Shown piece after piece: positions 4,710-46,778 of a stretch of 64,000 nucleotides of DNA; the stretch's first letter is position 1, and each line of letters begins with the position of its first letter. Source of the stretch: Tillus elongatus (taxonomy: Eukaryota > Arthropoda > Insecta > Coleoptera > Cleridae); NCBI GenBank assembly GCA_964006375.1, contig OZ023265.1, forward strand, positions 158,395,618 to 158,459,617, read 5' to 3'. A program made the translations under genes and the position numbers. Below the pieces are notes generated by a model. The model was not told the DNA's origin. It saw nothing but the letters and a program-made list of their open reading frames with translations, and ran no database searches.

Positions 4710-5799
4710 TTAGTACTTAGTAGATCCTCCATTGGCATCAATTACAGCTTGAACCCTTTTTGGCGTGCTCTGAATACATTTTTTTTACATTTTCTTTTAA
4801 TTCTTCATCATGATCAAACTTTAGTCAATGCCTCTATGAGATTTTGCTTGTTTTTGGTGTTTTCTTTCGATATTTCCCATTTCAGGAATTCCCAGGAATT
4901 ATCGATGGGGTTCATGTTTGGCGAGTTGCCGGGCCAAGGCAAAACTTTGATATGTTTTTTCTCTAAGAATGCTGTTACTGATTTAGCTTTGTGACAAGGA
5001 GCGCAATCATGCATAAAAGTGTATTCAGAAGGATTAGCAAACCAATCTCTGATCTGAGGAATCCGTCTTGTCTCCAATACTTTTTTGTACTGCTCCTGTT
5101 TCATCATGCCCTCCACTATGTAAATGCGTCCTGTACCTCTTCCACTGATAACTGACCATACCATAATCTTCAGAGGATTTTGACAGTCTCGACGACACAG
5201 TCAGGGCGGTATTTCTCATCCTGTATTCGCCGAACAAATGAAGATTTATCCATCATCATGTCAATGTGAGATTCGTCTGAGAAGCAAACCTTGAACAAAA
5301 TGAAAATATTAAATACAAATGGACCACAGTGATTAAAATATAACTGAAAGAGCCAAAATTAAGGATAAAAGGGAAATATTCACATTTTCCCAGTCTGCAA
5401 CCGTCATGTATCGATGTTGCTTAGCCCATGCCAAACCTTTAATCTTCATGGCCGGAGTCAGTTTTGGTTTCTTTGCTGGTCTGCAGCATTTGAATCCCAT
5501 TTCTACAAGGCGACGCCTAGTTGTTTTGATAGAAATGGTAATGCGGGCTTCATTTATAATTTTCGTCAACTCCTTCGTACACTTTCTCCTGTTAGCCAGG
5601 CAAATGTTACCTATTTTTCGGATATCTCGAGGCGTAGTGAGTCGCTTACGTCCACATTTTCCAGTTCTCTCTTCACCGTCATCACATTCACATCTGTAAG
5701 TGAAGCAATGTTTCTTTGGGAATAATTTGAATGCTTCAATAACGCAGAAATTTCTGAAATCTTTTCTGGGAGAATATCTTTGTTTTTCCCATTTTCCAC
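4710..5799 (-). pseudogene. Tc1-like transposase, intron-containing, broken
   Basis: The minus strand carries an N-terminal helix-turn-helix (about 5610-5799, NYSQRNIASLTDVNVMTVKR), a second paired-type helix region (5384-5570, TTRRRLVEMGF), and the DDE domain with CFSDES at about 5275 and FMHDCAPCHKAK / NSPNMNPIDNSWEFLK at about 4880-5010. Between ADWEN and VCFSDE the frame is interrupted by 94 bases (5290-5383) that begin GT and end AG on the coding strand, so a spliceosomal intron is inferred. One-base frame breaks lie near 5656 and 5175, and a premature stop is at about 4822. The natural end is likely the TAA at 4710-4712. All three catalytic acidic positions (D, D, E/D) are still recognisable. 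Inactive as it stands. Confidence 0.85.
5290..5383 (-). other. Putative spliceosomal intron in Tc1-like transposase
   Basis: On the minus strand the segment starts GTGAATATTT and ends TTGTTCAAG. Removing it makes the Tc1 motif ADWEN-VCFSDES contiguous, and stops are present inside it. No transcript evidence is available. Confidence 0.7.
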
Positions 5800-21581: not shown

Positions 21582-23278
21582 ATGTCATATTACGAAAAAG
21601 AACAAACCAAACTTATGGCGCTTTGGGAAGAATGCAAAGATGACGAGGAGGAATTCATAGTCTCTGAGGGGGATGGTGAAGTTGATCATTTAAGCGTCCA
21701 CGGTAGTCATTCTGATAGTGAAATTTGAGATAATGGTGCCGAAAATACTGAAGACGTACTTGAAAATGATATAAGTGAGTATAGAGGTGGATATTATGTG
21801 GGTAAGGACTCTATTACAACATGTAACAAGCAGTATAGTAATACCAGAGTAAGAACTAGGGCAGAACATATAATTTTAAAATTACCAGGATGCAAACCTT
21901 ACGCTAGAGATGCGAAAACTCCGCTGGATTGCTGGCTTCTGTTTTTTGACTCAACAATTATTGACAGCGTTACAGATTGCACAAACGTTATGATTGCCAA
22001 AAAGCTGTAGGCTATAAAGATAAAGAATATTGTAGCAATACAAACGTAACTGAAATAAAGGCTTTATTTGGTACCTTGTACCTTGCTGGTGTATACAGAA
22101 ACAGCCATCGCCATCTCAAAGAACTCTGGAGAACAAATGGAACGGGCATTGATATATTTCGTACAGTAATGGCTCTCAATAGATTCACATTTTTCCTTCA
22201 GTGTTTACGTTTCGACAACGTAGACAACACACAAGAACGCCTGAAATTAGATAAACTTGCAGATATACGGGCTGTGTTTGAAAAGTTTGTTTCAAACTGT
22301 AAACAGGCATATACACCAGGAGAATATTTAAAGATAGATGAAAAATTAGAGGCCTTTCGAGGTTGCTGTTCTTTTCGCCAGTATATTCCCAAGAAGCCTG
22401 CTAAGTATAGGATAAAAATCCAGGCTATGGTGAGCTCTCGCACATTTTATGTGCTTAATATGGAAGTTTATGCAGGAACTCAGCCGGATGGGGTTTATCA
22501 ACCAAGCAACAAACCTGTTGATATTGTGTAAATATTAGTAGCACCGATTTCTGATAGATATCGAAATGTCACCTTTGATAACTGGTACACTTCCTATGAA
22601 CTTGTGAATATTTTACGTGAAAAGCATAGTTTAACGTCGGTAGGAACTCTTAGGAAAAACACACGCGATATACCGTCAGCGCTACTAGAACTAAATAATA
22701 GACCATCTAAGAGTTCAATGTTTGCATTCCAGAAACATAACGCAATGGTATCGTATGTACCAAAGAAGGGTAGAAATGCTATTTTGTTCTCCTCTCTTCA
22801 TCATGATGACGAGATAAATCTACGGGGGATAAAAAACTACCCGAAATGGTAAGCTTTTACAATTTTACCAAAGGCGGTGTAGACCTTGTCAATGAATTGT
22901 CAGGAAGTTACACTGTATCTAGGAATTGCAGAAGATGCCCACAGAGAATTTTTTTTCTAATGGATACAGAATAAATTAATAGCCAGGTCACTTATAGGAC
23001 AAATACCAACAACTATTAAAAAAAGTGTCGTATATTTTTGGAAGATCTGGGTCTAGCTTTGATAGAGCCAACTTTGCAAGAAAGAAAAAATAACCTTCGA
23101 CTCACAAAATAACTTCGATTCAATATTCCCAGTGTGCTAGGCGAGACAAATGCTCCTCCGTGTAAAATACAAAAAAGCAGGATATGGTAAATGCGAACAA
23201 TGTCCCAGAAACAAAGACAGAAAGTTGAAGTGTTCTTGTTCTAATACAAGACCACCAAAACATACACGTTGCAGCTAA
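21582..23278 (+). pseudogene. piggyBac-family transposase, broken
   Basis: Starts at ATG 21582 with an acidic N-terminus typical of piggyBac proteins, interrupted by a stop at about 21727. The catalytic domain follows: FGTLYLAGVYRN (22070-22100), KIDEKLEAFRG, VTFDNWYTSYEL (first D, about 22580), SSLHHDDEINLRG (second D, about 22800) and FTKGGVDLVNEL (third D, about 22895). The C-terminal cysteine-rich domain KCEQCPRNKDRKLKCSC ends at TAA 23276-23278. Frame breaks lie near 22005, 22530 and 22853, with further lesions after 22910. The three acidic residues persist but the gene is dead. Terminal repeats and TTAA ends were not identified with confidence. Confidence 0.85.
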
Positions 23279-36530: not shown

Positions 36531-36750
36531 AAAGTCTGTATGCAGGAAGTGCGTTATGGTAATGAATTTTCATAAAAATATTTTTAATAACAAATATGTC
36601 TTTTTTTTAAAGCAAGCAGGCATGAAATTTGGTTACCAGTATAACTTATATAGTAGAAACAATGTACCATATTTCATAAAAATGGTTTTATTGTTTGAAA
36701 ATGTACAAAAAATTTCCTAAAATAAACTTAAAATGTTCCCGAAAAAACTA
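36531..36750. repeat. Hairpin-ended dispersed repeat fragment
   Basis: Contains the GCAGGAAGTGCGTTATGG hairpin variant and the TTTGGTTACCAGTATAA module shared with 420-560, 14440-14600 and 16730-16860. Confidence 0.6.
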
Positions 36751-36764
36751 ATTCCTGGCCAAAG

Positions 36765-36886
36765 CGCCTCCGTGGCCGTGCGGGAAAGTCGATTCAGACT
36801 TTCCAATACGGACTCGGGGGACGACGGTTCGAGACTCACCGGCGGCAGATGATTTTTCAAATCACTATCGTCGTTGAGATCGAGCT
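36765..36886 (+). tRNA. tRNA-like head (type II, Ser/Leu-like), probably SINE or pseudogene
   Basis: Acceptor strands GCCTCCG and CGGCGGC pair at six of seven positions. The A-box-like region is TGGCCGTGCGG, the anticodon-like arm is AAGTC-GATTCA-GACTT, a long variable region follows, and the B box is GGTTCGAGACTC. A short non-tRNA part follows, then a (TGACC)n tail leading into the virus-like element's terminus. It may be a tRNA-derived SINE whose simple-repeat tail merged with the terminal repeat. Confidence 0.45.
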
Positions 36887-37305
36887 GACCTGACCTGACC
36901 TGACCTGACCTGACCTGACAGCTGTCAACGTCAGTTGTCACCTGACCTGTCAGGTGTCAATGTCAGCTGTCACCTGACCTGTCAGTGTTGACAGATGTCA
37001 AATGTCACCTAACCTGTCATATGTCACATCTGTCACAAGCATTCCAAGATGGCTGACCTGTAATAGACAGCTGCAACCCCTGGTTCTCTATGAAACTGAC
37101 CTGAGATGACGTCACAAGCGTTCCAAGATGTCTGACCTGTGTCCATAGATATCTACAAGTCAGGTTAGGTATTAACTGTCTTATGTCTGACCTGTGATGA
37201 CGTCACAAGCGTTCCAAGATGTCTGACCTGTGTCCAAAGATATCTACAAGTCAGGTCTCCATGTGTGTTTGTCGAATACCAGCTGTCTGATTGTTTATTA
37301 AGGTA
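36887..37305 (+). repeat. Left inverted terminal repeat of the virus-like element
   Basis: Begins with about seven TGACC repeats, then blocks of CTGTCA / TGACAG and TGTCACCTGACCTG, and two copies of GATGACGTCACAAGCGTTCC with TAGATATCTACAAGTCAGGT. The same sequence inverted is at 46110-46592, over 90 percent alike by eye. Contains CRE-like TGACGTCA sites and CAGCTG E-box motifs. Confidence 0.85.
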
Positions 37306-38200
37306 ATGTTTGTATTTGTTATTTGAATGCAAACAGACATGTTAATAAGAGTGTACTTACATACAACAAGAGACGTCATCCTTGTTTCACAGCTTAACAC
37401 ACACTACTGAACAAATGTCTCCTGTGTTGAGGAAACAGACAGACAGACAACTGATTGCCATTGTTGAAGCTTATACATGCTGTTTGAAAGGATATAACAC
37501 ACGTCATGACAGTTCAAAGTCTTTGCTTAGACTGACAGATGCATGTGTATTTGAAAGAAAAGCATTCGCCTGAAATTAGATTTGAACCCACGAACCTCGA
37601 ATCCGCCATAGACAGCTTTCTCAGATATACTATTGCTAAACCAATAGCTCCACAGACGCACACGTTAAAAGTTTGTTCGCAGTTGTATATATAAAACAAA
37701 AGCCAGTTGTTGTTTACATATGAGGTTAGGTGTTCGTATACATGTTGATTACCAATCATCTGATTGTTTAGTAAGGTTATGTTTGTATTTGTTATTTGAA
37801 TACAAACAGACATAATAAGAGGAGTGTACTTACATACAGCAAGAGACGTCATCCTTGTTTCACTGCTTAACACATACTGAACAAGTGTCTCTTTCTCTTG
37901 TATTGAGGAAACAAACTGATGTAAGAGAGAGAGAGAGAGAGAGAGGCCTTACAAAAGGATAAACAACGTTTTACAGTTGTTAACCTTGATCCTGTTTGAG
38001 CTTGTCTGTGTATCTGTTTAATATACGCAAGAGAGAGGCCCTCTTAAAGGTAAACAACGTGTCAGTTGATGACCTTGTGTTATATCTGTTGAATCATTCC
38101 ATTATACGTGTTTGAGCTTGTCTAGAATACAGTCGTTAGAAGTATGACATCATCCATGTAAAAAACAAATACAGTTTAAAACGGTTACTGTGGGTAATAT
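37306..38200. repeat. Subterminal non-coding region with internal direct repeats
   Basis: A block of about 115 bp, TGATTGTTTA to TTAACACA, occurs at 37288-37400 and again at 37760-37875. 37499-37541 is inverted relative to 44642-44690 and 44768-44810 (AGTCTAAGCAAAGACTT). A (GA)n run lies at 37925-37945. A B-box-like GGGTTCAAATC is on the minus strand at about 37578-37590. No protein gene. Confidence 0.65.
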
Positions 38201-38201
38201 G

Positions 38202-38250
38202 TATAAATAGGCTACACACAGACACTCTTAAACATATTCATAATTCAGTT
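38202..38250 (+). promoter_or_regulatory. Candidate promoter of the KilA-N gene
   Basis: TATAAATA at 38202-38209, and an arthropod-type initiator TCAGTT at 38245-38250. The spacing of about 43 bp is longer than the usual 30, so the true start may be nearer 38232. The first downstream ATG is the KilA-N start at 38302. Confidence 0.5.
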
Positions 38251-38301
38251 GTTGTTGAGAAAAGACTTGCTTCAGTTTACTCTACCCAAATCTGTTTCAA
38301 A

Positions 38302-39237
38302 ATGGCTACATTAAGTGATGTGTGTTACCAGCAAATTAAAGACAACTTCTGGTATGGTCTATTTGGAGACTTTCAACTTATTATCGATAAGAACACTGGC
38401 TATTTTAATGTAACTAAACTGTGTAAAACTAGTAATAAAAAATTATATCATTGGATGGAAAATAAGAAAACTAAAGAGTTGATTGCCTATTACAACAGTC
38501 GGCTGAAGGAACAATTGGGTTATCGGAATACCGAAAAGCCAAATATTCCAACCGAAGGAGCCCACTTAGAGTCGCTTCCAAAGGGTCGAAATACCAATAC
38601 CCTAAAAACGGACGCAGCATCTCAAGTAACACCAGCAACAGCTACATACGTATTAAACATTGGTGGAGCGCTCGCTGAAAACGACACGATATCTGGTACA
38701 TATGTGTGTAAAGATTTGATAGTAAATTTGGCTTGCTGGATATCCAATCAGTTCTATGACAAATGCAACCAAATTATTTTTGATTTTTTCCTAAACGAAT
38801 TTGATCAGAAATACAAGGACAACCTAGATGCGATTGAAGTAAAATTAATGGAGATAAATGATGAGGTGCAACGTATGCGAGAAACAAATGCTAAAGTCAC
38901 AGAATATCTTGAAGATATATCCCCAAAGCCAAGTAACCTGGGAAAAATAAGTGTGTTTGGTTTACTTGCAAGAAACGAGACAGGCGCCCCCTATCCATAT
39001 CATGCTGTAAGAACACAAAAGAAAAGTTTCCCCAGGGCTGTGAGGAACTTTAAAAATAAACACCCCAACGCCCAAGTGATCCTAAACAAGCTGTACGATC
39101 CAAATTCAGTAAATCTCTTTAACATAATAAAGCCTGAAGTGAAATACCTTACAGCACATAGAAACAACCTACATATAGCCGATGTACCACAAGATAAGTT
39201 TGTTCAGGATATTATTGCTTTAAGACATACTTTTTAA
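38302..39237 (+). CDS. KilA-N domain protein
   Basis: 311 codons, intact. Residues about 20-115 form a KilA-N domain (FQLIIDKNTGYFNVTKLC, KKLYHWMENKKT, then the segment around LIVNLACWISNQFYDKC), a DNA-binding fold common in large DNA viruses and phages. Residues about 165-205 look like a coiled coil (KLMEINDEVQRMRETNAK). The C-terminal third (KISVFGLLARNE to LTAHRNNLHI) resembles the DUF3627-type domain that follows KilA-N in invertebrate DNA viruses. The start follows a TATA/initiator pair, and AATAAA is at 39249-39254. As the only regulator-like gene of the element, it may control transcription or take part in replication, but that is inference. Confidence 0.85.
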   Translation: MATLSDVCYQQIKDNFWYGLFGDFQLIIDKNTGYFNVTKLCKTSNKKLYHWMENKKTKELIAYYNSRLKEQLGYRNTEKPNIPTEGAHLESLPKGRNTNTLKTDAASQVTPATATYVLNIGGALAENDTISGTYVCKDLIVNLACWISNQFYDKCNQIIFDFFLNEFDQKYKDNLDAIEVKLMEINDEVQRMRETNAKVTEYLEDISPKPSNLGKISVFGLLARNETGAPYPYHAVRTQKKSFPRAVRNFKNKHPNAQVILNKLYDPNSVNLFNIIKPEVKYLTAHRNNLHIADVPQDKFVQDIIALRHTF

Positions 39238-39248
39238 TTGTATTACAA

Positions 39249-39254
39249 AATAAA
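39249..39254 (+). terminator. Poly(A) signal of the KilA-N gene
   Basis: AATAAA 12 bp after the stop codon. The convergent gene on the minus strand ends 160 bp further on. Confidence 0.6.
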
Positions 39255-39411
39255 AACACAGTAATTTTAACAAAGACTTTTATTTGATTCTAAGTACAAG
39301 TATGTAAACTCTTGGAATACATTTATAGAATTATTAACATAAGATGGTTCAGTGTTGCGTTGGTGCTGTTGTTGTTGTTGTCGTTGGTGCCTCTTCATGG
39401 CTGTGGGCTTA

Positions 39412-40531
39412 CTAGGTGATAACACTAGCTTCTTTTAGTTCTTCCAAGATTGACTGAATTTCGTTGTTATCAGCATTATTACCTGCAACTTGGGAAGCCA
39501 CTAAAAGTCTAAGTCTGTCAACCAACTCGTTTATGTCATTCCAATACACATAGGTTATTTGTTTGTTATTTTGTATCATATAGTTGTTGGTGCTGATGTT
39601 GTTGTTAGGGTTCATGCCGTTGCCTTCGCTGCTCTTATCACTGTGAGTTTTAAGTTCAGTCTTTTGTTTTTTGTTAAGATGTCTGACGTTGCTGTCGTCA
39701 TCGTCTTCCTCGTAGGTGTAACCAAAACCTTGAGGAGTTGAGGATCTACGACCTCGTGGATTTATCACTGGTTTTATTAGAGTCAGATACTTTTCAGAGG
39801 AACAACCCTTGGTTCGGGCGTTAGGATCATAGTTCATTTTATGAACACTAGTTGCTTCTAGAATATCTCTATAGTGTTGAAGATCGTCATAGGTATACCC
39901 TCTAGGTGTTTTCATAAATATCAATTCTAGCAGACCTTGTGTTTGCGGATATCTCCGTTGACCTAGTCGAATGTCATTATCAGTAAAGTCCAAGTGTTTA
40001 TTGCCAAGACTCCAGCTACCGGTATCTTTAGCGTAGCGAGCACCATACGTTTGATCAATGGTAGCGAGCCTTGGTGGTTCAGTAAAATACTTGTCTACAT
40101 AATATCGAACTCGTTCAGGATATTGCTCCAAAAATTCTTGATATGCAGGGTTGGATGTGACAGTTTGTAGGTCTGCCTCAAGCTCTTCAAATGTTGGGAT
40201 ATCCTCATCGGAACTTGTCTCCTCAGCCTCTTCCCTAGGTTCAGCTTCAAAAACTTCATGGTCTTTAAGGAACTGTACTTGGGGTTTCGTTTCTGGTATA
40301 TCGACTTCGTCTTTGATTTGTTCAGCCTTTGGTGGTTGCGGTGGGTGCTGCTGCTGCTGTGTTTTTAGATATTTCACTTAGGGGCTCAACAAGTGGTTTA
40401 TATAAACGTTGCAGAGCATCATCATTCTCAGCTCTGTTAAGTTTAAGCATTAAATGTTTTTTTCGAATATTGTCAGCAAGTTGTAAAATCCTTTTCTTAA
40501 CTTTTCGCTCTTCCTTACCCAACACTTCCAT
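39412..40531 (-). pseudogene. DUF8207-like protein of virus-like elements, one frameshift
   Basis: Two overlapping minus frames form one protein. 40531-40322 begins MEVLGKEERKVKKRIL with a basic, coiled-coil N-terminus. 40377-39412 (321 codons) carries a Q/P-rich hinge, an acidic stretch (EEAEETSSDED), a central domain (YPERVRYYVDKYF, GLLELIFMKTPRGYTYDDL), a poly-acidic linker, a basic NKKQKT, and the C-terminal signature YWNDINELVDRLRLLVASQV. The second frame has no ATG before its core, so it depends on the first; a one-base shift at the (CAG)4 tract (about 40350) separates them. Such proteins accompany capsid genes in arthropod elements and the function is unknown. The break could be a mutation, a sequencing slip or a +1 recoding site. 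Family name recalled, not searched. Confidence 0.75.
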
Positions 40532-40660
40532 TGTGCTACAACTGTTTGGTGTTACCAGTCGGTCTAATCATTTGTTTGAGCGATACAGGTTGTGTGGTGG
40601 TTTAACATATACTGACTCCTTCATGGTACATGCCTTCTTATTTATCACGATGTCTGGCTG

Positions 40661-41068
40661 TCTTGTTAGACAGCTGTGTTAGACAGCTGTGTTAGACAGC
40701 TGTGTTAGACAGCTGTGTTAGACAGCTGTGTTAGACAGCTGTGTTAGACAGCTGTGTTAGACAGCTGTGTTAGACAGCTGTGTTAGACAGCTGTGTTAGA
40801 CAGCTGTGTTAGACAGCTGTGTTAGACAGCTGTGTTAGACAGCTGTGTTAGACAGCTGTGTTAGACAGCTGTGTTAGACAGCTGTGTTAGACAGCTGTGT
40901 TAGACAGCTGTGTTAGACAGCTGTGTTAGACAGCTGTGTTAGACAGCTGTGTTAGACAGCTGTGTTAGACAGCTGTGTTAGACAGCTGTGTTAGACAGCT
41001 GTGTTAGACAGCTGTGTTAGACAGCTGTGTTAGACAGCTGTATGACAGCTGTGTTAGACAGCTGACTG
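40661..41068. repeat. 13-bp minisatellite, about 30 copies, E-box core
   Basis: Tandem copies of TTAGACAGCTGTG, nearly invariant over 400 bp, with one altered unit near 41040-41050. Each unit contains the palindrome CAGCTG. It lies between the start of the DUF8207-like gene and the end of the ATPase gene, where their transcription runs in the same direction, so it occupies the upstream region of the former. Confidence 0.95.
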
Positions 41069-41088
41069 CCCTGTCTATCATTGTTGTG

Positions 41089-41784
41089 TTAGAATAATAT
41101 ATATCTATCGAATCCTTTTCTATATCGGCCTTTGTGTACATCGTTTTCCTTCACAATCACCAACACACCATACTTATTATCTTTCCAGCATTGGTAGCAG
41201 ATAGTTTTAAATTGTTTAAAGTCCATATCGGTGGTCACATGATCATCGTACACGTGTTTTAAATTGGTTTCATCTTGCTTGAATAACACAATAACATTGG
41301 TGTTGTCACGAACCAGATGTTTGGGTATTCGTGTATATGTTTGACAGAGATAGAATGAATCAATATTCTTATGTCTGCCCATACTGAAGTATGCTCTTAT
41401 TTTATCTTGTTTGTCACAAGCTACATCATCAAATATAAACACAGAGTTGTCCTTGGCATCTGCCGGATCTAATATTTCATCGTTTTCTCTATAAGGATAG
41501 TAACCAACACCTTTTGTTGCATTCATCACCTCCTTTAACATCTTGTATTTCGGTTGATACAGAGACTTTGAATACACATACACGTTATCAAATTTTAAAC
41601 CGTTTGCTTCAAACAACAAACTCAGCATGACATTAGTTTTACCACACCCACTCGGACCACATATGATACAGCGAACGGTGTTTGGAAAGAGAGGACCATG
41701 CCTCAGTTGTTGTTGAGCTGTGTCCGTAACAACATCGTCTATATTTGTAATGGGTAAGGCAGAAGCGTGTTTGCTGGTACGCAT
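41089..41784 (-). CDS. Genome-packaging ATPase (FtsK/A32-like)
   Basis: 231 codons, intact. Walker A is CGPSGCGKTNVMLSLLF at residues about 42-58 and Walker B is VFIFDDVAC at about 114-122. LCQTYTRIPKHLVRDN follows, matching the sensor region of A32-type packaging ATPases of Polinton-like and large DNA viruses. The length is normal for the family. It would drive DNA into preformed capsids. The gene is divergent from the pX-like gene at 41856, with about 70 bp of shared promoter (an AATAAAATATAG element on this strand). The C-terminus is followed 20 bp later by the minisatellite. Residues needed for ATP binding and hydrolysis are intact. Confidence 0.9.
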   Translation of the reverse strand: MRTSKHASALPITNIDDVVTDTAQQQLRHGPLFPNTVRCIICGPSGCGKTNVMLSLLFEANGLKFDNVYVYSKSLYQPKYKMLKEVMNATKGVGYYPYRENDEILDPADAKDNSVFIFDDVACDKQDKIRAYFSMGRHKNIDSFYLCQTYTRIPKHLVRDNTNVIVLFKQDETNLKHVYDDHVTTDMDFKQFKTICYQCWKDNKYGVLVIVKENDVHKGRYRKGFDRYILF

Positions 41785-41858
41785 CTTAACTTAAACTAAA
41801 CTATATTTTATTTGGGTGTGTATATATATGAATGCAAGTGAGACACCCAGTCAGTATG
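41785..41858 (+). promoter_or_regulatory. Divergent promoter, ATPase and pX-like genes
   Basis: Rightward: TATATATA at 41820-41828 and initiator TCAGTA at 41851-41856, spaced about 30 bp. Leftward: the minus-strand TATA-like AAATATAG near 41800 is close to the ATPase ATG at 41784. Confidence 0.6.
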
Positions 41859-42452
41859 CATGTTGGTGTCACAGAGTGTGGGTTGTTATTAACAAAGACA
41901 GATACAGGTTTTGCTGAAACGTTGCGGGGCGTTACAAACACCATGAAAGTTAACAGAAAACTTGATGAGGGGTTTTATGTAATCAACTCGAAGCCAAAGA
42001 AGAAGGTTCCCTTTAAAAACATACTAAGTCTGATTGAGGAAGTTATAAAAGATAGAAACCTTATTCCAACAGCGAACGCCGTGTTTGATATAGCTCATAC
42101 AATTGTTAGAAACATTGGTGGACGTAAGAATGTGCAGAAACCTCGAGTTATTCCAATACCTAAAAGTGGAGGCTTCCTTCCGCTGTTGCCTCTGATATTT
42201 GGTGGGCTGTCAGCACTAGGAGCTCTGGGTGGTGGTGCTGCAGGTATTGCCAAAGCCGTGAACGATGCCAAGTCTGCGAAACAGAAACTAGAGGAGGAAG
42301 AACGGCACAACAAAACAATGGAAGCCATCGCGATGGGTAGGAGAGGGAGTGGCTTGAAATTTAAGCCAAAATGCAAGAGACTGGGCAAAGGCATGTATCT
42401 CAAGAAACAGCGCTCCGGTTATGGGTTGTATCTGCAAAAACCATTGCAATAA
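41856..42452 (+). CDS. pX-like virion core/minor capsid protein
   Basis: The frame is open from 41832, but that ATG lies between the TATA box and the likely transcription start. Starts at 41856 or, with a normal leader, 41943 (MKVNRKLDEGF) are more plausible. A hydrophobic glycine/alanine-rich segment (LPLLPLIFGGLSALGALGGG) about 90-125 residues in is followed by a charged helix (KSAKQKLEEEERHNK) and a strongly basic, glycine-rich tail (GSGLKFKPKCKRLGKGMYL). This layout is that of adenovirus pX/pVI-like proteins of adintoviruses, which bind DNA or membranes in the virion. The role is inferred from layout and from its position before the capsid genes. The stop overlaps an AATAAA at 42449. Confidence 0.72.
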   Translation: MHVGVTECGLLLTKTDTGFAETLRGVTNTMKVNRKLDEGFYVINSKPKKKVPFKNILSLIEEVIKDRNLIPTANAVFDIAHTIVRNIGGRKNVQKPRVIPIPKSGGFLPLLPLIFGGLSALGALGGGAAGIAKAVNDAKSAKQKLEEEERHNKTMEAIAMGRRGSGLKFKPKCKRLGKGMYLKKQRSGYGLYLQKPLQ

Positions 42453-42484
42453 AAGACTCAAACAGTAGCCTGTGTGTATCAGTC

Positions 42485-43195
42485 ATGGCGCACACCTTTG
42501 TGTTGAAAGACCGCAGCTCCCATCTGTCGTCAGACTACCATCCACCAATTGTTTTGGATGGTAATTATGCTGTTGCCTTGATAGGCTTTCACACCTACAA
42601 CAACATACCCAACATCTATGAAGGTAAAAACAAATTTCATGTAAAAGAAGGAACCGGTTGGCGAACCATCACGATACCCACCGGTGCTTATGAAATAACA
42701 CACTTGGAAGAGTTACTTCAAAATGAACTTGTTGGTGCTACAGCAACACACGAACAAAAGCAACAGGCTCTGATTCTGAGACCTAATCCGAACACCATCA
42801 AATGTAGACTAAAGTCTTATACAAATGTCAGTTTTGAATTTGATGGTTCGATTGGGCGAATGTTGGGCTTTTCAAAACAAGTTCTTCAGCCGGACACCTT
42901 TTATGAATCTGATTTACCTGTTGAAATAGTGGATGTTAGACAGATTCGCATCGAAACCAATATTGTGTCTGGTTCCTATTATAACGGACAACCCTCACAT
43001 ACGCTGTATGAGTTTGCTCCGATGGTTGATCCTGGCTACGCAATCGACATAGAACCTAAAAATTTAATTTACTTGCCGGTGAACAAGCAAGAGATTTCCA
43101 ATATAAGCATCGACATCGTCGACCAAGATTCAGTTCCTGTCAACTTTCAAGGTGAAGAGGTGTCTGTTCGCTTGAAACTTATAAAAGTTGCTTAG
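42485..43195 (+). CDS. Penton-like minor capsid protein
   Basis: 236 codons from ATG 42485. The frame is open upstream to 42371, but that part overlaps the pX-like gene and has no resemblance. Begins MAHTFVLKDRSSHLSSDY and contains YAVALIGFHTYNNIPNI, a hydrophobic beta strand region. The C-terminus (EISNISIDIVDQDSVPVNFQ, GEEVSVRLKLIK) is the typical last strands of the single-jelly-roll penton proteins of Polinton-type elements. It would form the capsid vertices with the major capsid protein encoded 120 bp downstream. Compact spacing with both neighbours suggests a late-gene cluster, although each gene appears to have its own TATA element. The assignment comes from terminal motifs and gene order. 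Confidence 0.78.
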   Translation: MAHTFVLKDRSSHLSSDYHPPIVLDGNYAVALIGFHTYNNIPNIYEGKNKFHVKEGTGWRTITIPTGAYEITHLEELLQNELVGATATHEQKQQALILRPNPNTIKCRLKSYTNVSFEFDGSIGRMLGFSKQVLQPDTFYESDLPVEIVDVRQIRIETNIVSGSYYNGQPSHTLYEFAPMVDPGYAIDIEPKNLIYLPVNKQEISNISIDIVDQDSVPVNFQGEEVSVRLKLIKVA

Positions 43196-43213
43196 TATGT
43201 TGGTCTTTAAGGA

Positions 43214-43250
43214 TATAAAAGCAAGTGCATCTACCACAACAAATTCAGTT
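43214..43250 (+). promoter_or_regulatory. Promoter of the major capsid gene
   Basis: TATAAAAG at 43214-43221 and initiator TCAGTT at 43245-43250, spaced 31 bp, the textbook arthropod arrangement. Predicted start near 43247, giving a 71-base leader to the ATG at 43318. Confidence 0.75.
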
Positions 43251-43317
43251 GAGTCAGACACATCAAAGGGTACGCTTCGTCCCGATAATATTGAGTTCCT
43301 GCAAAGCCTGGGTTACC

Positions 43318-44523
43318 ATGTCGTCAAAACTAGAAATATTCAAAGAACCCGTGTTTGATGATGGCATCGATCGAGAAGAGCTGCGCTCTTACTATTCACC
43401 AACTAAATCGTTTGGTAACAGCGATGAAATTGAAATAGCCATCAACCAACAAGATGCGTTCGTATGTCTGGCCGAGTCAGCTCTAATAATCGAAGGTGCT
43501 CTGGAACCTGTAGCATTCCAAAATGCCACTGGTGCTTGTTATCTGTCAAATAATGGAGGAGCAGCTCTGTTTGAATCCATGACCTATGAGTTAAATAACA
43601 AGGAAGTGGAACGAGTGCGAGACCCATACACCACAACCATCATCAAAAGTCTGCTATCGTTCAGTAAGAATGAAGCCCAATCTCTTAGCAATGCCGGTCT
43701 GAATGTGTCGTCGGAGCACATCACCTTAAATGATAACAAGTTTCACATGCTCATACCTGTCTGGTTCCTCTTCAGTTTCTTTCATCATTTCAAAGGAGTT
43801 CTCTGTGGCAAACATACTTTCCGCTTTACAAGAGCTCGAAACGATTCCAACGGCTATTACAGCACAGGTACGGCACGAGCAAAAATTACCGTAACCAATA
43901 TGTTTTTAAAGGTAAAACATGTATTTCCCAATGATAAAATGAAATTGGAACTGATGGATAAAATAGCCAAAGACACCTCTATATTTCTCGCATACCGCAA
44001 ATGGGACATATATGAGTTACCAGCACTCAGAGATATCAACAGAGATGTGTGGGCTGTTAAAACTGCAACCAACTTGGAAAGACCTCGATATGTGATTATA
44101 GCATTTCAAACAGATCGTAAGGATAACGTGAAGAAGAGGTCAGACTATTTCGATAACATTGGTATGTTGGACCTCAGAGTGTTTCTAAATTCAGAATGCT
44201 ACCCTTATGAATCTATGAATATGGATTTTGAGAAATCGAAATATGCAGAAGCCTATAACATGTATACAGATTTTCAAAAAAGCTTCTGTTATAAAAACAT
44301 GTCGGAGCCTATCTTGAATTATGACGAGTTTAAAGACAGAGCTCTATTTGTGATTGACTGTCAGCACCAGAACGAGTCAATCAAGTCTTCAACGGTGGAC
44401 ATTAAGGTGGAGTTTATGAGTCACGCCAACTTCCCTAAAAATACGCGTGTTTATTGTTTGGTTATTCATGACAGTGTAATGGAATATAAACCTCTAACGG
44501 GCATCGTTAGAGCCATTATGTAA
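43318..44523 (+). CDS. Double-jelly-roll major capsid protein
   Basis: 402 codons from ATG 43318. The upstream in-frame ATG at 43225 precedes the predicted transcription start, so it is not used. N-terminus MSSKLEIFKEPVFDDGI, then SDEIEIAINQQDAFVCLAES. The second half has YELPALRDINRDVWAVK, LERPRYVIIAFQTDRKDN and SECYPYESMNMDF, and it ends YKPLTGIVRAI. These are landmarks of the arthropod double-jelly-roll capsid family (DJR-like domain) of Polinton-like elements. The product would assemble the trimeric hexon-like capsomers. The frame is intact with no stops, and AATAAA is at 44571-44576. Fold assignment is from recognised sequence motifs, not modelling. Confidence 0.87.
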   Translation: MSSKLEIFKEPVFDDGIDREELRSYYSPTKSFGNSDEIEIAINQQDAFVCLAESALIIEGALEPVAFQNATGACYLSNNGGAALFESMTYELNNKEVERVRDPYTTTIIKSLLSFSKNEAQSLSNAGLNVSSEHITLNDNKFHMLIPVWFLFSFFHHFKGVLCGKHTFRFTRARNDSNGYYSTGTARAKITVTNMFLKVKHVFPNDKMKLELMDKIAKDTSIFLAYRKWDIYELPALRDINRDVWAVKTATNLERPRYVIIAFQTDRKDNVKKRSDYFDNIGMLDLRVFLNSECYPYESMNMDFEKSKYAEAYNMYTDFQKSFCYKNMSEPILNYDEFKDRALFVIDCQHQNESIKSSTVDIKVEFMSHANFPKNTRVYCLVIHDSVMEYKPLTGIVRAIM

Positions 44524-44570
44524 TAATAGTATGTCATTTATGTATCAATATGTACAACTTAATTAATCCT

Positions 44571-44576
44571 AATAAA
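44571..44576 (+). terminator. Poly(A) signal of the major capsid gene
   Basis: AATAAA 48 bp after the stop codon, followed by T-rich DNA. Confidence 0.65.
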
Positions 44577-44579
44577 TTT

Positions 44580-46109
44580 TTATTGTATGTAAAACAGTTG
44601 TTTTATTTTTATTTTGTTGCATTTTTATTAACCCCTTTCTGTCTGTCAGTCTAAGCAAAGACTTCGAGCTGTCATGACGTGTTTGTTAAACAGCTGTACA
44701 AGCTCAAACAAGGTTCTATATGATACTTGTTGGGCAATCAATTGTCTGTCTGTCTTTTATTACACAGCTCTGTCAGTCTAAGCAAAGACTTCGAGCTGTC
44801 ATGACGTGTGTGTGTGTGTGTTAACAATCAACAACAGCGTCTATATGTTTTGTTTGGTTCAAGTGGATGTCATTAAACAACTGTGTTATTTCTATAACGA
44901 CCCCCCATTCAAGACCTCAACAGACGTCAGTGTGTGTTAAGCCGTGAAACATGTATGACGTCTCTTGCTGTATGTAAGTATACTATTATATTATTTATGT
45001 TTGCATACAAACAATACTTATCAAACAATCCTCGTATATCAAAGTTTAGTTTGATGTTTTAAATCGAGTTTTGTTACTTGTGTTTTTTGATCACTCCCTA
45101 TACAGATTCATTCTAATAGGAAAACACTAACATAAACAAACACGCATACATAAAACCAGGTCTCCAGTTTTATTACCCCCATTAAACAAATTCATTAACA
45201 TATCTACATGTAAATACGTTTTGTTATTGATAGTTTGCTTCAAACGTTTTTGTTTTTAGAATTTTATATTAGATATGTAAATTGGAACGTCTTTAAATAT
45301 CTTTTACTATAAAATATATATATACTATTGTTTTTAAAAAATTACCGTACCTATTATATATTCAAATTGGAATGTAATAGAGATACCACCCCTGCCCACA
45401 CACACACACACTCATCAGCCTGATAAACTCGTTTTTAAATTATCATATATGTAACAGGTTTTGTTTTATATATACCACTGCGAACACACTTTCACCGTAT
45501 GTCTGAATAACATGATCGGTTTAGGGACGTTTGCATATCTTAGTAAGCTGTATGGTTGGGGTTCGAATCTAATTCAAATCTAATTTCAGGCGAATGCTTT
45601 TCTTTCAAAAATCATATTTCAAATCAAAATCAAATTTCAAATTACCCGCTCAATATATCTTCCTAATATATGTATGTGTGTGCTAAACCGAATGACTGTG
45701 TCCAACAGATGTCTCCCCTCGAGCTAGGGAATATTCTCCCACTCTACAACTTTACAAATAGAATATTCCCTAGCTCGATGAGTCAGATCTCTGGACACAA
45801 CAGACAGTAATTTTCAAACAAATTCAAATTTCCCGCCAAAAACGAAATACCCTAACAAACTTCAATACACCTTAACAACACAATAAACAACAGACAGCTG
45901 TCCTTAATAAACAAATACAAACATAACCTTAATAAACAAACAGATGATTGGTAATCAACACGTGTGCGAACATAACCTTAATAAACAAATACATACATAA
46001 CCTTAATAAACAAATACATACATAACCTTAATAAACAAACAGATAGCACGTTGACGACATAACAAATACAAACATAACCTTAATAAACAAACAGATGAAT
46101 GGTAATCAA
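44580..46109. repeat. Right subterminal non-coding region of the virus-like element
   Basis: Two direct copies of TCAGTCTAAGCAAAGACTTC (44647 and 44768) mirror the left subterminal region. 45525-45600 mirrors 37555-37640 (GGTTCGAATCTAAT, GGCGAATGCTTTTC). A run of ACCTTAATAAACAAA repeats occupies 45900-46085. A perfect hairpin lies at 45719-45778. There is no open frame of note, so the missing polymerase or integrase is not hidden here. Confidence 0.7.
45719..45778. repeat. Perfect 19-bp-arm hairpin
   Basis: TCGAGCTAGGGAATATTCT (45719-45737) and AGAATATTCCCTAGCTCGA (45760-45778) are exact inverted copies around a 22-base loop. No similar structure is seen in the left subterminal region. It could be an origin, a resolution site or a small inserted palindrome. 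Confidence 0.9.
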
Positions 46110-46592
46110 CACATAAACAATCAGACAGCTGGTATTCGACAAACACACACACACATGGAGACGTGACTTGTAGATATCTATGGACACAGGTCAGACATCT
46201 TGGAACGCTTGTGACGTCATCACAGGTCAGACATAAGACAGTTAATACCTAACCTGACTTGTAGATATCTATGGACACAGGTCAGACATCTTGGAACGCT
46301 TGTGACGTCATCTCAGGTCAGTTTCATAGAGAACCAGGGGTTGCAGCTGTCTATTACAGGTCAGCCATCTTGGAATGCTTGTGAGAGATGTGACATATGA
46401 CAGGTTAGCTGACATTTGACATCTGTCAACACTGACAGGTCAGGTGACAGCTGACATTGACACCTGACAGGTCAGGTGACAGCTGACGTTGACAGCTGTC
46501 AGGTCAGGTGACATTGACACCTGTCAAAACTGACAGGTCAGCTGTCAACTGTCACAGGTCAGCGCATGCGCATGACGTCACGCGCATGCGCA
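46110..46592 (-). repeat. Right inverted terminal repeat of the virus-like element
   Basis: Inverted counterpart of 36887-37305, with the two GGAACGCTTGTGACGTCATC blocks and alternating TGACAG / CTGTCA / TGACCTG motifs. It extends further outward than the left copy and ends in GCGCATGCGCATGACGTCAC-type palindromes. Confidence 0.85.
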
Positions 46593-46778
46593 GAAAAAAA
46601 GTGGAGGGGGTGAGCCCAGGTGCTGGACTATCTACTGATTGAGGCCCCGTAATCGAGCTACAACCCACCTTTGTCCACCGCTCTAAGGAGTAGGCAGATT
46701 GAGGCCTTAGAGTTCATGTCCTTCTTCATGTCGATTTTTATAAATTCTGGATGCGGTTCAACCCGAGAACCAAGTATG

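What the first reader, a model, noticed from the sequence alone, without database searches (positions are those of the whole stretch)
36887..46592. Capsid-encoding Polinton/adintovirus-like element with no polymerase, integrase or protease
Long inverted terminal repeats enclose six genes: KilA-N, DUF8207-like, packaging ATPase, pX-like, penton-like and double-jelly-roll capsid. Capsid, penton, pX, ATPase and KilA-N frames are open, so virion parts may still be made. Known Polintons and adintoviruses carry PolB and an integrase; here the only unassigned space is non-coding. Either this copy is a deletion derivative mobilised by a full-length relative (a capsid-bearing satellite), or it is a lineage that replicates and integrates by other means, perhaps with KilA-N or host enzymes.
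Basis: partly seen in the sequence, partly recalled or inferred. Interest (0 to 1): 0.88.

Follow-up and report, generated by a model that had tools for sequence, protein, structure and literature searches.

The report
Polinton split across separate genomic elements
A virus-like mobile element that encodes its own capsid but no polymerase or integrase is one of many near-identical copies in its genome, and the missing enzymes were found on two other kinds of element with similar ends, which suggests a virus-like transposon whose genome is divided into pieces.

Summary
In detail: inverted arms of 365 nt (98%), open capsid, penton, pX, ATPase and KilA-N frames, a frameshifted DUF8207-like gene, no PolB, integrase or protease. 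The right terminus is 46636; the left end is lost. It is not a one-off deletion. Of 10 sister copies whose end regions I fetched, 7 show both ends (8.6-9.5 kb; 6 of 7 with exact 6-bp duplications). All 97 scored capsids are intact. The shared end motif occurs 518 + 510 times (control 0 + 0). One 17.3-kb element with that end, read in full, has integrase, adenain-like protease, ATPase, penton and a capsid 41% identical to this one, but only an N-terminal PolB domain. PolB sits on a third class (18.7-19.2 kb, 18 of 22 end nucleotides shared) in which no capsid, ATPase or integrase was found. None of 119 integrase loci lies within 30 kb of 77 PolB loci; neither lies within 30 kb of 97 class-A capsids. 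Best reading: a Polinton-class system divided over separately integrated elements that complement each other in trans; this one is a capsid segment or capsid-bearing satellite. Trans use is inferred; an unsampled all-in-one Polinton is not excluded.

The parts
36887..37272 (.). left terminal inverted repeat, truncated (roughly 110-130 nt of the end missing)
   Evidence: arm 36908-37272 pairs with 46145-46509 at 98%; AGTAGATAG end absent on the left
38140..39237 (+). KilA-N + DUF3627 protein (365 aa stop to stop)
   Evidence: PF04383 E 4.5e-22, PF12299 E 5.2e-16
39412..40567 (-). DUF8207-like gene, frameshifted in this copy near 40370 (frames 39412-40377 and 40322-40567)
40560..41119 (.). 13-nt tandem repeat array between the DUF8207-like gene and the ATPase
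   Evidence: family D1
41089..41790 (-). packaging ATPase (A32 type), 233 aa
   Evidence: PF04665 E 4e-9; 78.9% aa identity to the class-B ATPase
41832..42452 (+). pX-like minor virion protein; mostly removed by one shared deletion (window 41846-42369) in 7 of 20 loci compared
   Evidence: 64.3% over 171 aa to the class-B PLA2-pX protein
42485..43195 (+). penton-like minor capsid protein (ATG 42485, 236 aa)
   Evidence: ORF open; 52.6% to the class-B penton-like protein; name by recall and synteny
43219..44523 (+). double jelly-roll major capsid protein, 434 aa
   Evidence: PF21738 E 8.2e-77; 97 of 97 scored loci intact, this one included
44524..46144 (.). apparently non-coding right region with direct repeats; 44798-46642 is 78% identical to the end of the class-B element
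46145..46636 (.). right terminal inverted repeat, intact to terminus 46636 (AGTAGATAGTCCAGCACCTGGG on the - strand)

Best explanation
The element is a capsid-coding, non-autonomous member (class A) of a Polinton/adintovirus-class system whose genes are divided among at least three kinds of separately integrated elements with related ends. Class A (8.6-9.5 kb measured): KilA-N, DUF8207-like, packaging ATPase, pX, penton, capsid. Class B (17.3 kb in the one read): integrase, adenain-like protease, PLA2-pX, ATPase, penton, a different capsid, matrixin. Class C (18.7 and 19.2 kb): PolB and matrixin. Proposed working (inferred): PolB from C copies linear DNA with these termini, B integrase inserts it with a 6-bp duplication, B protease matures virions, and A rides along while supplying its own shell. 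Shown: gene contents of the elements read, ends, duplications, copy numbers, physical separation of the listed loci. Not shown: use of the enzymes in trans, packaging, expression.
For: Class A: 7 of 10 sister copies with both ends, 8558-9523 bp; 6-bp duplication exact in 6 of 7, 5 of 6 nt in the other; capsid intact in 97 of 97 scored; a pX-deleted form is itself multicopy (7 of 20). End motif, at most 1 mismatch: 518 + 510 hits, reversed control 0 + 0; A and C ends agree at 18 of 22 nt. Class B: rve E 3.7e-11, DJR E 8.3e-58, PLA2 E 1.8e-12, matrixin E 1.2e-26; PolB queries match only the N-terminal domain; duplication GAATGA. Class C: two elements with long TIRs, PolB frames, matrixin E 2.2e-28 in one, duplication ATCATT in one; no tblastn match to B integrase, capsid, penton, pX, ATPase or DUF8207-like gene in 14 pieces. 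Separation: 0 of 119 integrase loci within 30 kb of 77 PolB or 97 capsid-A loci; 0 of 77 PolB within 30 kb of a capsid A. B and C share matrixin (67.7%) and a PolB N-terminal domain paralogue.
Against: Locus lists are truncated: scored 77 PolB places of 809 candidates, 97 capsids of 7336, 119 integrases of 12280. 100 of the 119 integrase loci carry at least one stop (TGA) in the matched stretch and 19 none; whether it lies before the first Met (residue 21) or inside the gene could not be settled. One PolB family with an uninterrupted 1277-aa frame was read only about 5-9 kb to each side, part of it N, and could be a conventional Polinton. C ends differ from A/B within the first 22 nt, and the C1 and C6 PolB elements show no other shared DNA with the window beyond a KilA-N remnant. 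One class-B element only was read in full. No expression, virion or excision data.
Confidence: 0.6

Rival explanations
1. Class A (and perhaps B and C too) is a non-autonomous satellite of a conventional all-in-one Polinton (PolB + integrase + capsid) that lives in this genome or infected it, and which my sample missed.
For: A third kind of PolB locus has an unsplit 1277-aa PolB and a gene shared with class B (DEDD-like by eye, 45%); its surroundings were not read to their ends. Published PLVs without integrase were proposed to use resident Polinton integrases in trans (PMC4642659, passages).
Against: No listed PolB within 30 kb of any of 119 listed integrase loci; no class-B capsid or integrase match in the pieces read around that family.
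Confidence: 0.25
2. Simple deletion product: A arose recently by internal deletion of a full element, and its capsid frames have just not yet decayed.
For: A lacks genes that its relative B has; ends and ATPase are clearly homologous to B.
Against: Capsid 40.6% and penton 52.6% identical to B, yet capsid intact in 97 of 97 scored loci; capsid pN/pS 0.083 over 20 loci (sample chosen by similarity; penton gives 0.515 on few changes). No B, C or other element read has a complete KilA-N gene.
Confidence: 0.07
3. A replicates and integrates by other means, with KilA-N or host enzymes.
For: KilA-N is the only gene outside the virion/packaging set and DUF8207-like gene, and its frame is open.
Against: 6-bp duplications and AGTAG...CTACT ends as in the integrase-bearing class; KilA-N/DUF3627 have no known integrase or polymerase activity (recalled).
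Confidence: 0.05

Closest known systems
Polinton/Maverick (polintovirus)
   Same: DJR capsid, penton, A32-type ATPase, long TIRs, 6-bp duplication (the last recalled for Polintons); B and C together have PolB, rve integrase and an adenain-like protease
   Different: Per PMC4642659 (passages) all Polintons encode PolB and integrase; here no element read has both, and A has neither
Adintovirus / meldvirus
   Same: capsid, penton, pX, ATPase flavour (recalled); PMC11071296 (passages) reports adenovirus-class virion genes in genomes without recognisable PolB and integrase
   Different: Its figure-legend example pairs virion genes with a primase-helicase and tyrosine recombinase; A has no recognisable replicase and is a high-copy integrated element
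Polinton-like viruses without integrase
   Same: minimal morphogenetic module; trans use of a resident Polinton integrase was proposed (PMC4642659, passages)
   Different: algal/protist setting; here candidate complementing elements are found in the same genome
Tlr1 of Tetrahymena
   Same: integrase, ATPase and capsids without a DNA polymerase (PMC4642659, passages): like class B
   Different: no partner element with PolB and matching ends is mentioned in the passages read
Bidna-like Vesanto virus
   Same: DNA virus related to PolB-bearing bidnaviruses, possibly of up to twelve segments, with terminal inverted repeats (PMC8363768, passages)
   Different: ssDNA; parvovirus-type capsid and no rve integrase (recalled)

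Membership tests
Polinton/Maverick | protein-primed PolB encoded by the element | tested here: not met
   PolB queries find nothing in 36801-46700; 7 complete sisters are too short to differ by a PolB gene (8.6-9.5 kb)
Polinton/Maverick | rve integrase encoded by the element | tested here: not met
   class-B integrase does not match anywhere in the window; query matches its own source as control
Polinton/Maverick | DJR capsid, penton and A32-type ATPase | tested here: met
   (penton by relation to class B and recall)
Polinton/Maverick | TIRs and 6-bp target-site duplication | tested here: met
   (6 of 7 sisters exact; the window copy lacks its left end)
Polinton/Maverick | adenain-like maturation protease | tested here: inconclusive
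   none seen by eye in A; PF00770 gave 0 hits genome-wide but its control rang nowhere, and it also missed the adenain-like ORF of class B, which I name by eye and which gave no Pfam hit as a cut piece
Satellite (non-autonomous) of a Polinton | a helper in the same genome with usable ends | tested here: inconclusive
   similar ends and 6-bp duplications on integrase- and PolB-bearing classes; use in trans not tested
Multipartite virus | segments packaged and transmitted together or in parallel | not testable with these tools
   no virion data
Adintovirus | PolB, integrase and hexon on one genome | tested here: not met
   as above; definition from PMC11071296 passages

The most novel reading that the evidence does not exclude
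A dsDNA virus/transposon of the Polinton class with a truly multipartite genome in a eukaryote: polymerase on one integrated segment, integrase, protease and one capsid set on another, and a second, deeply diverged capsid set with KilA-N on a third, held together by common ends and amplified to hundreds of copies.
Probability: 0.4. Interest if true: 0.92.

Novelty: new variant of a known kind. Interest (0 to 1): 0.8.

Why it matters
Polintons are defined by carrying polymerase and integrase together. A genome in which many elements with one end signature divide these genes would show how a self-synthesising transposon becomes segmented or parasitised, and gives a natural system in which to ask whether capsids of one element carry another's DNA. 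It also bears on the origin of multipartite PolB viruses such as bidnaviruses.

Tried and rejected
A simple-deletion reading was rejected by sister sizes and capsid divergence. A 7-kb tandem PolB unit at C2:137.84 Mb was dropped as a likely assembly overlap: 1104 nt repeated at 100% in a piece that also holds a run of N. A 163-nt stretch shared by the window and one class-C TIR looked like a repeat insertion; tblastn shows a KilA-N remnant. AlphaFold on the penton alone was useless (mean pLDDT 32.6). Viral-contig searches with capsid, one PolB, a PolB alignment and ATPase found no relatives; a PolB motif pattern gave one contig whose ORFs look unrelated. PDB searches gave a Vsr-like endonuclease insert for PolB and nothing of note for the capsid. 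PHROGs added a transcription-regulator hit for KilA-N and a weak terminase hit for the ATPase. The listed end pairs were mostly not opened: of 27 pairs of 8-12 kb only 2 hold a capsid of the list. Three of 41 pairs carry PolB-type ends: 18.7 kb (PolB), 9.8 kb (middle 3 kb read) and 10.1 kb (unread).
Full report
What is there. The window lies at C4:158395618-158459617 of a 1.72-Gb assembly with 30 contigs. The element has inverted arms 36908-37272 and 46145-46509, 365 nt, 98%. Its right terminus is 46636, read from the ends of sister copies. On the left some 110-130 nt of the end are missing and replaced by non-element sequence, so this copy is damaged and shows no target duplication. Genes: KilA-N with DUF3627, a DUF8207-like gene that is frameshifted here, A32-type ATPase, pX, penton, DJR capsid. 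The DUF8207-like gene is open in 3 of 4 other copies fetched in that region; the fourth piece is a retroelement with DUF1759 and an aspartyl protease. PolB queries find nothing in 36801-46700; class-B integrase, matrixin and PolB-N queries find nothing in the 64 kb.

It is a family, not a relic. A protein search returned 97 scored capsid loci (this one included) out of 7336 first-look candidates; all 97 are full length, without stops, 99-100% identical. I fetched both end regions of 10 copies. In 7 of 10 both AGTAGATAG ends are present; lengths are 8558-9523 bp; the 6-bp flanking duplication is exact in 6 of 7 and matches at 5 of 6 nt in the seventh. The other three: one has its left end at the very edge of the piece, one has a retroelement upstream and no left end in the piece, one is a fragment without ends. 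Over 20 loci with sequence, capsid pN/pS is 0.083. That set was picked by similarity to the query, which biases it, and the penton (19 of 20) gives 0.515 on very few changes. 7 of 20 loci share one deletion of about 525 bp that removes most of pX, so a form lacking a virion gene has itself multiplied.

The ends lead to two other classes. The pattern AGTAGATARTNCGGCACYTGRG with at most one mismatch occurs 518 + 510 times, the reversed control 0 + 0; this would be some 500 elements if ends pair up. Of the 100 listed hits, 41 neighbouring +/- pairs give sizes of 8-12 kb (27 pairs), 17-19 kb (10), 22-29 kb (3) and 0.3 kb (1). I read one 17.3-kb pair in two pieces: matrixin metalloprotease, several orphan ORFs, a DEDD-like ORF (name by eye), DJR capsid, penton, adenain-like protease (by eye; it ends ...NTINCGHLCLKFL), PLA2-pX, ATPase, DUF8207-like, rve integrase and a lone PolB N-terminal domain paralogue, but no further PolB. 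Its right end region is 78% identical in DNA to the window family and its ATPase 78.9% in protein, whereas capsid is 40.6% and penton 52.6%. Its 6-bp duplication is GAATGA. I call this class B and the window family class A.

PolB is elsewhere. PF03175 gives 154 matches at 77 places (77 scored of 809 candidates), most with open frames of about 1000 aa or more. Two loci were read to both ends, apart from the PolB core that one search shows open: C1:52345617-52364329 (18713 bp) and one on C6 (19203 bp), with TIRs of about 1.6 kb in the first and similar in the second. Their ends are AGTAGATAATACGGCACTTGAG and AGTAGGTAATGGGTCACTTGAG; the first agrees with the capsid-class end at 18 of 22 nt. The C6 copy has the duplication ATCATT; the C1 copy sits in an AT run that tells nothing. 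They hold PolB, a matrixin (called by Pfam in the C1 copy; matching in C6) and small ORFs. A GT-AG intron at LMLNSFW^GK is seen in two PolB loci (L050, L051). tblastn with class-B integrase, capsid, penton, pX, ATPase and DUF8207-like protein finds nothing in 14 pieces from PolB loci and a PolB-type-ended element; only matrixin, the PolB-N domain, the DEDD-like gene and KilA-N remnants are shared (the integrase query finds its own source). This is class C. A further PolB locus (C2:60.86 Mb) is an 18.5-kb near-perfect palindrome with PolB in both arms, ends AGTAGTTAGTGGGCCAC..., no duplication, no capsid.

Physical separation. The class-B integrase search scored 119 of 12280 candidates, all 96-100% identical, on C1-C10 and C13. 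100 of 119 carry at least one stop (TGA) in the matched stretch, 19 none. The query begins 20 residues before its first Met, and only residues 2, 7 and 10 of that leader are one change from TGA, against 21 positions behind it, so the stop may be harmless or may break the gene; a search from the Met did not complete. 0 of 119 lie within 30 kb of the 77 PolB places (nearest 77.9 kb) or of the 97 class-A capsids (nearest 49.5 kb); 0 of 77 PolB places lie within 30 kb of a class-A capsid (nearest 36.1 kb). Of 12 end pairs longer than 17 kb with capsid-type ends, 5 hold a listed integrase (one is the query's own) and none a listed PolB; the one with PolB-type ends holds PolB and no listed integrase. 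The lists are capped, so this is strong but not final.

Mechanism, shown and inferred. Shown: three gene sets on separate elements, similar termini, 6-bp duplications in all three classes (6 of 7, 1 of 1, 1 of 2 with the other uninformative). Inferred: class C polymerase copies, and class B integrase inserts, DNA with these ends; class A depends on both and adds its own shell. B and C each lack what the other has, which is what a divided genome would look like; A could be a third segment or a satellite with its own capsid. A conventional full Polinton in the unsplit-PolB family remains possible.

Known systems. PMC4642659 (passages) states that Polintons universally carry PolB and integrase, and proposes trans use of Polinton integrase by PLVs. 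PMC11071296 (passages) reports virion modules without recognisable PolB and integrase. PMC8363768 (passages) describes a bidna-like virus of possibly twelve segments. PMC6431247 was seen as passages. The 6-bp duplication and AG...CT ends of Polintons are recalled. Eight searches of the held library listed no report of a Polinton split over elements, judged from titles and abstract starts of the rows shown; one search found 0 papers for 'non-autonomous Polinton' and five variants. Most subscription papers and bioRxiv preprints are not held.

Noticed in passing
L051/L052 (C2:60858000-60877800): A PolB element exists as an 18.5-kb palindrome with 99.4% identical 9.2-kb arms, PolB in each. Eleven neighbouring pairs of PolB places lie within 17 kb of each other; by the strands, nine of the eleven point in opposite directions.
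   Followed up: partly
C10 (16.3 Mb) of the window genome: 8 of 77 scored PolB places and 5 of 119 integrase places lie on this small contig (about 1% of the genome), but 0 of 97 class-A capsids: perhaps a sex or B chromosome rich in class C.
   Followed up: no
L050 about 1025-1965, L051 about 5115-5240: PolB carries a GT-AG intron at the same codon (LMLNSFW^GK) in two families, while another family has an unbroken 1277-aa frame; PolB also has a Vsr-endonuclease-like insert.
   Followed up: partly
L069 (inside C1:27482131-27491935): The middle 3 kb of a 9.8-kb element with PolB-type ends is palindromic, with only a PolB N-terminal domain paralogue and KilA-N remnants: a possible fourth class.
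   Followed up: partly
L065 3-1448, L067 1312-3015: Elements of both B and C classes carry a matrixin metalloprotease with a hemopexin repeat.
   Followed up: partly
class-B integrase loci: 100 of 119 copies share a TGA somewhere in the matched integrase stretch, 19 have none; position unknown.
   Followed up: partly
window 21965-22528: piggyBac-like transposase fragment (by eye) and several LINE-like reverse transcriptase fragments elsewhere in the window.
   Followed up: no
window 36750-36890: SINE-like sequence with a box-B-like motif (by eye) abuts the truncated left end of the element.
   Followed up: no
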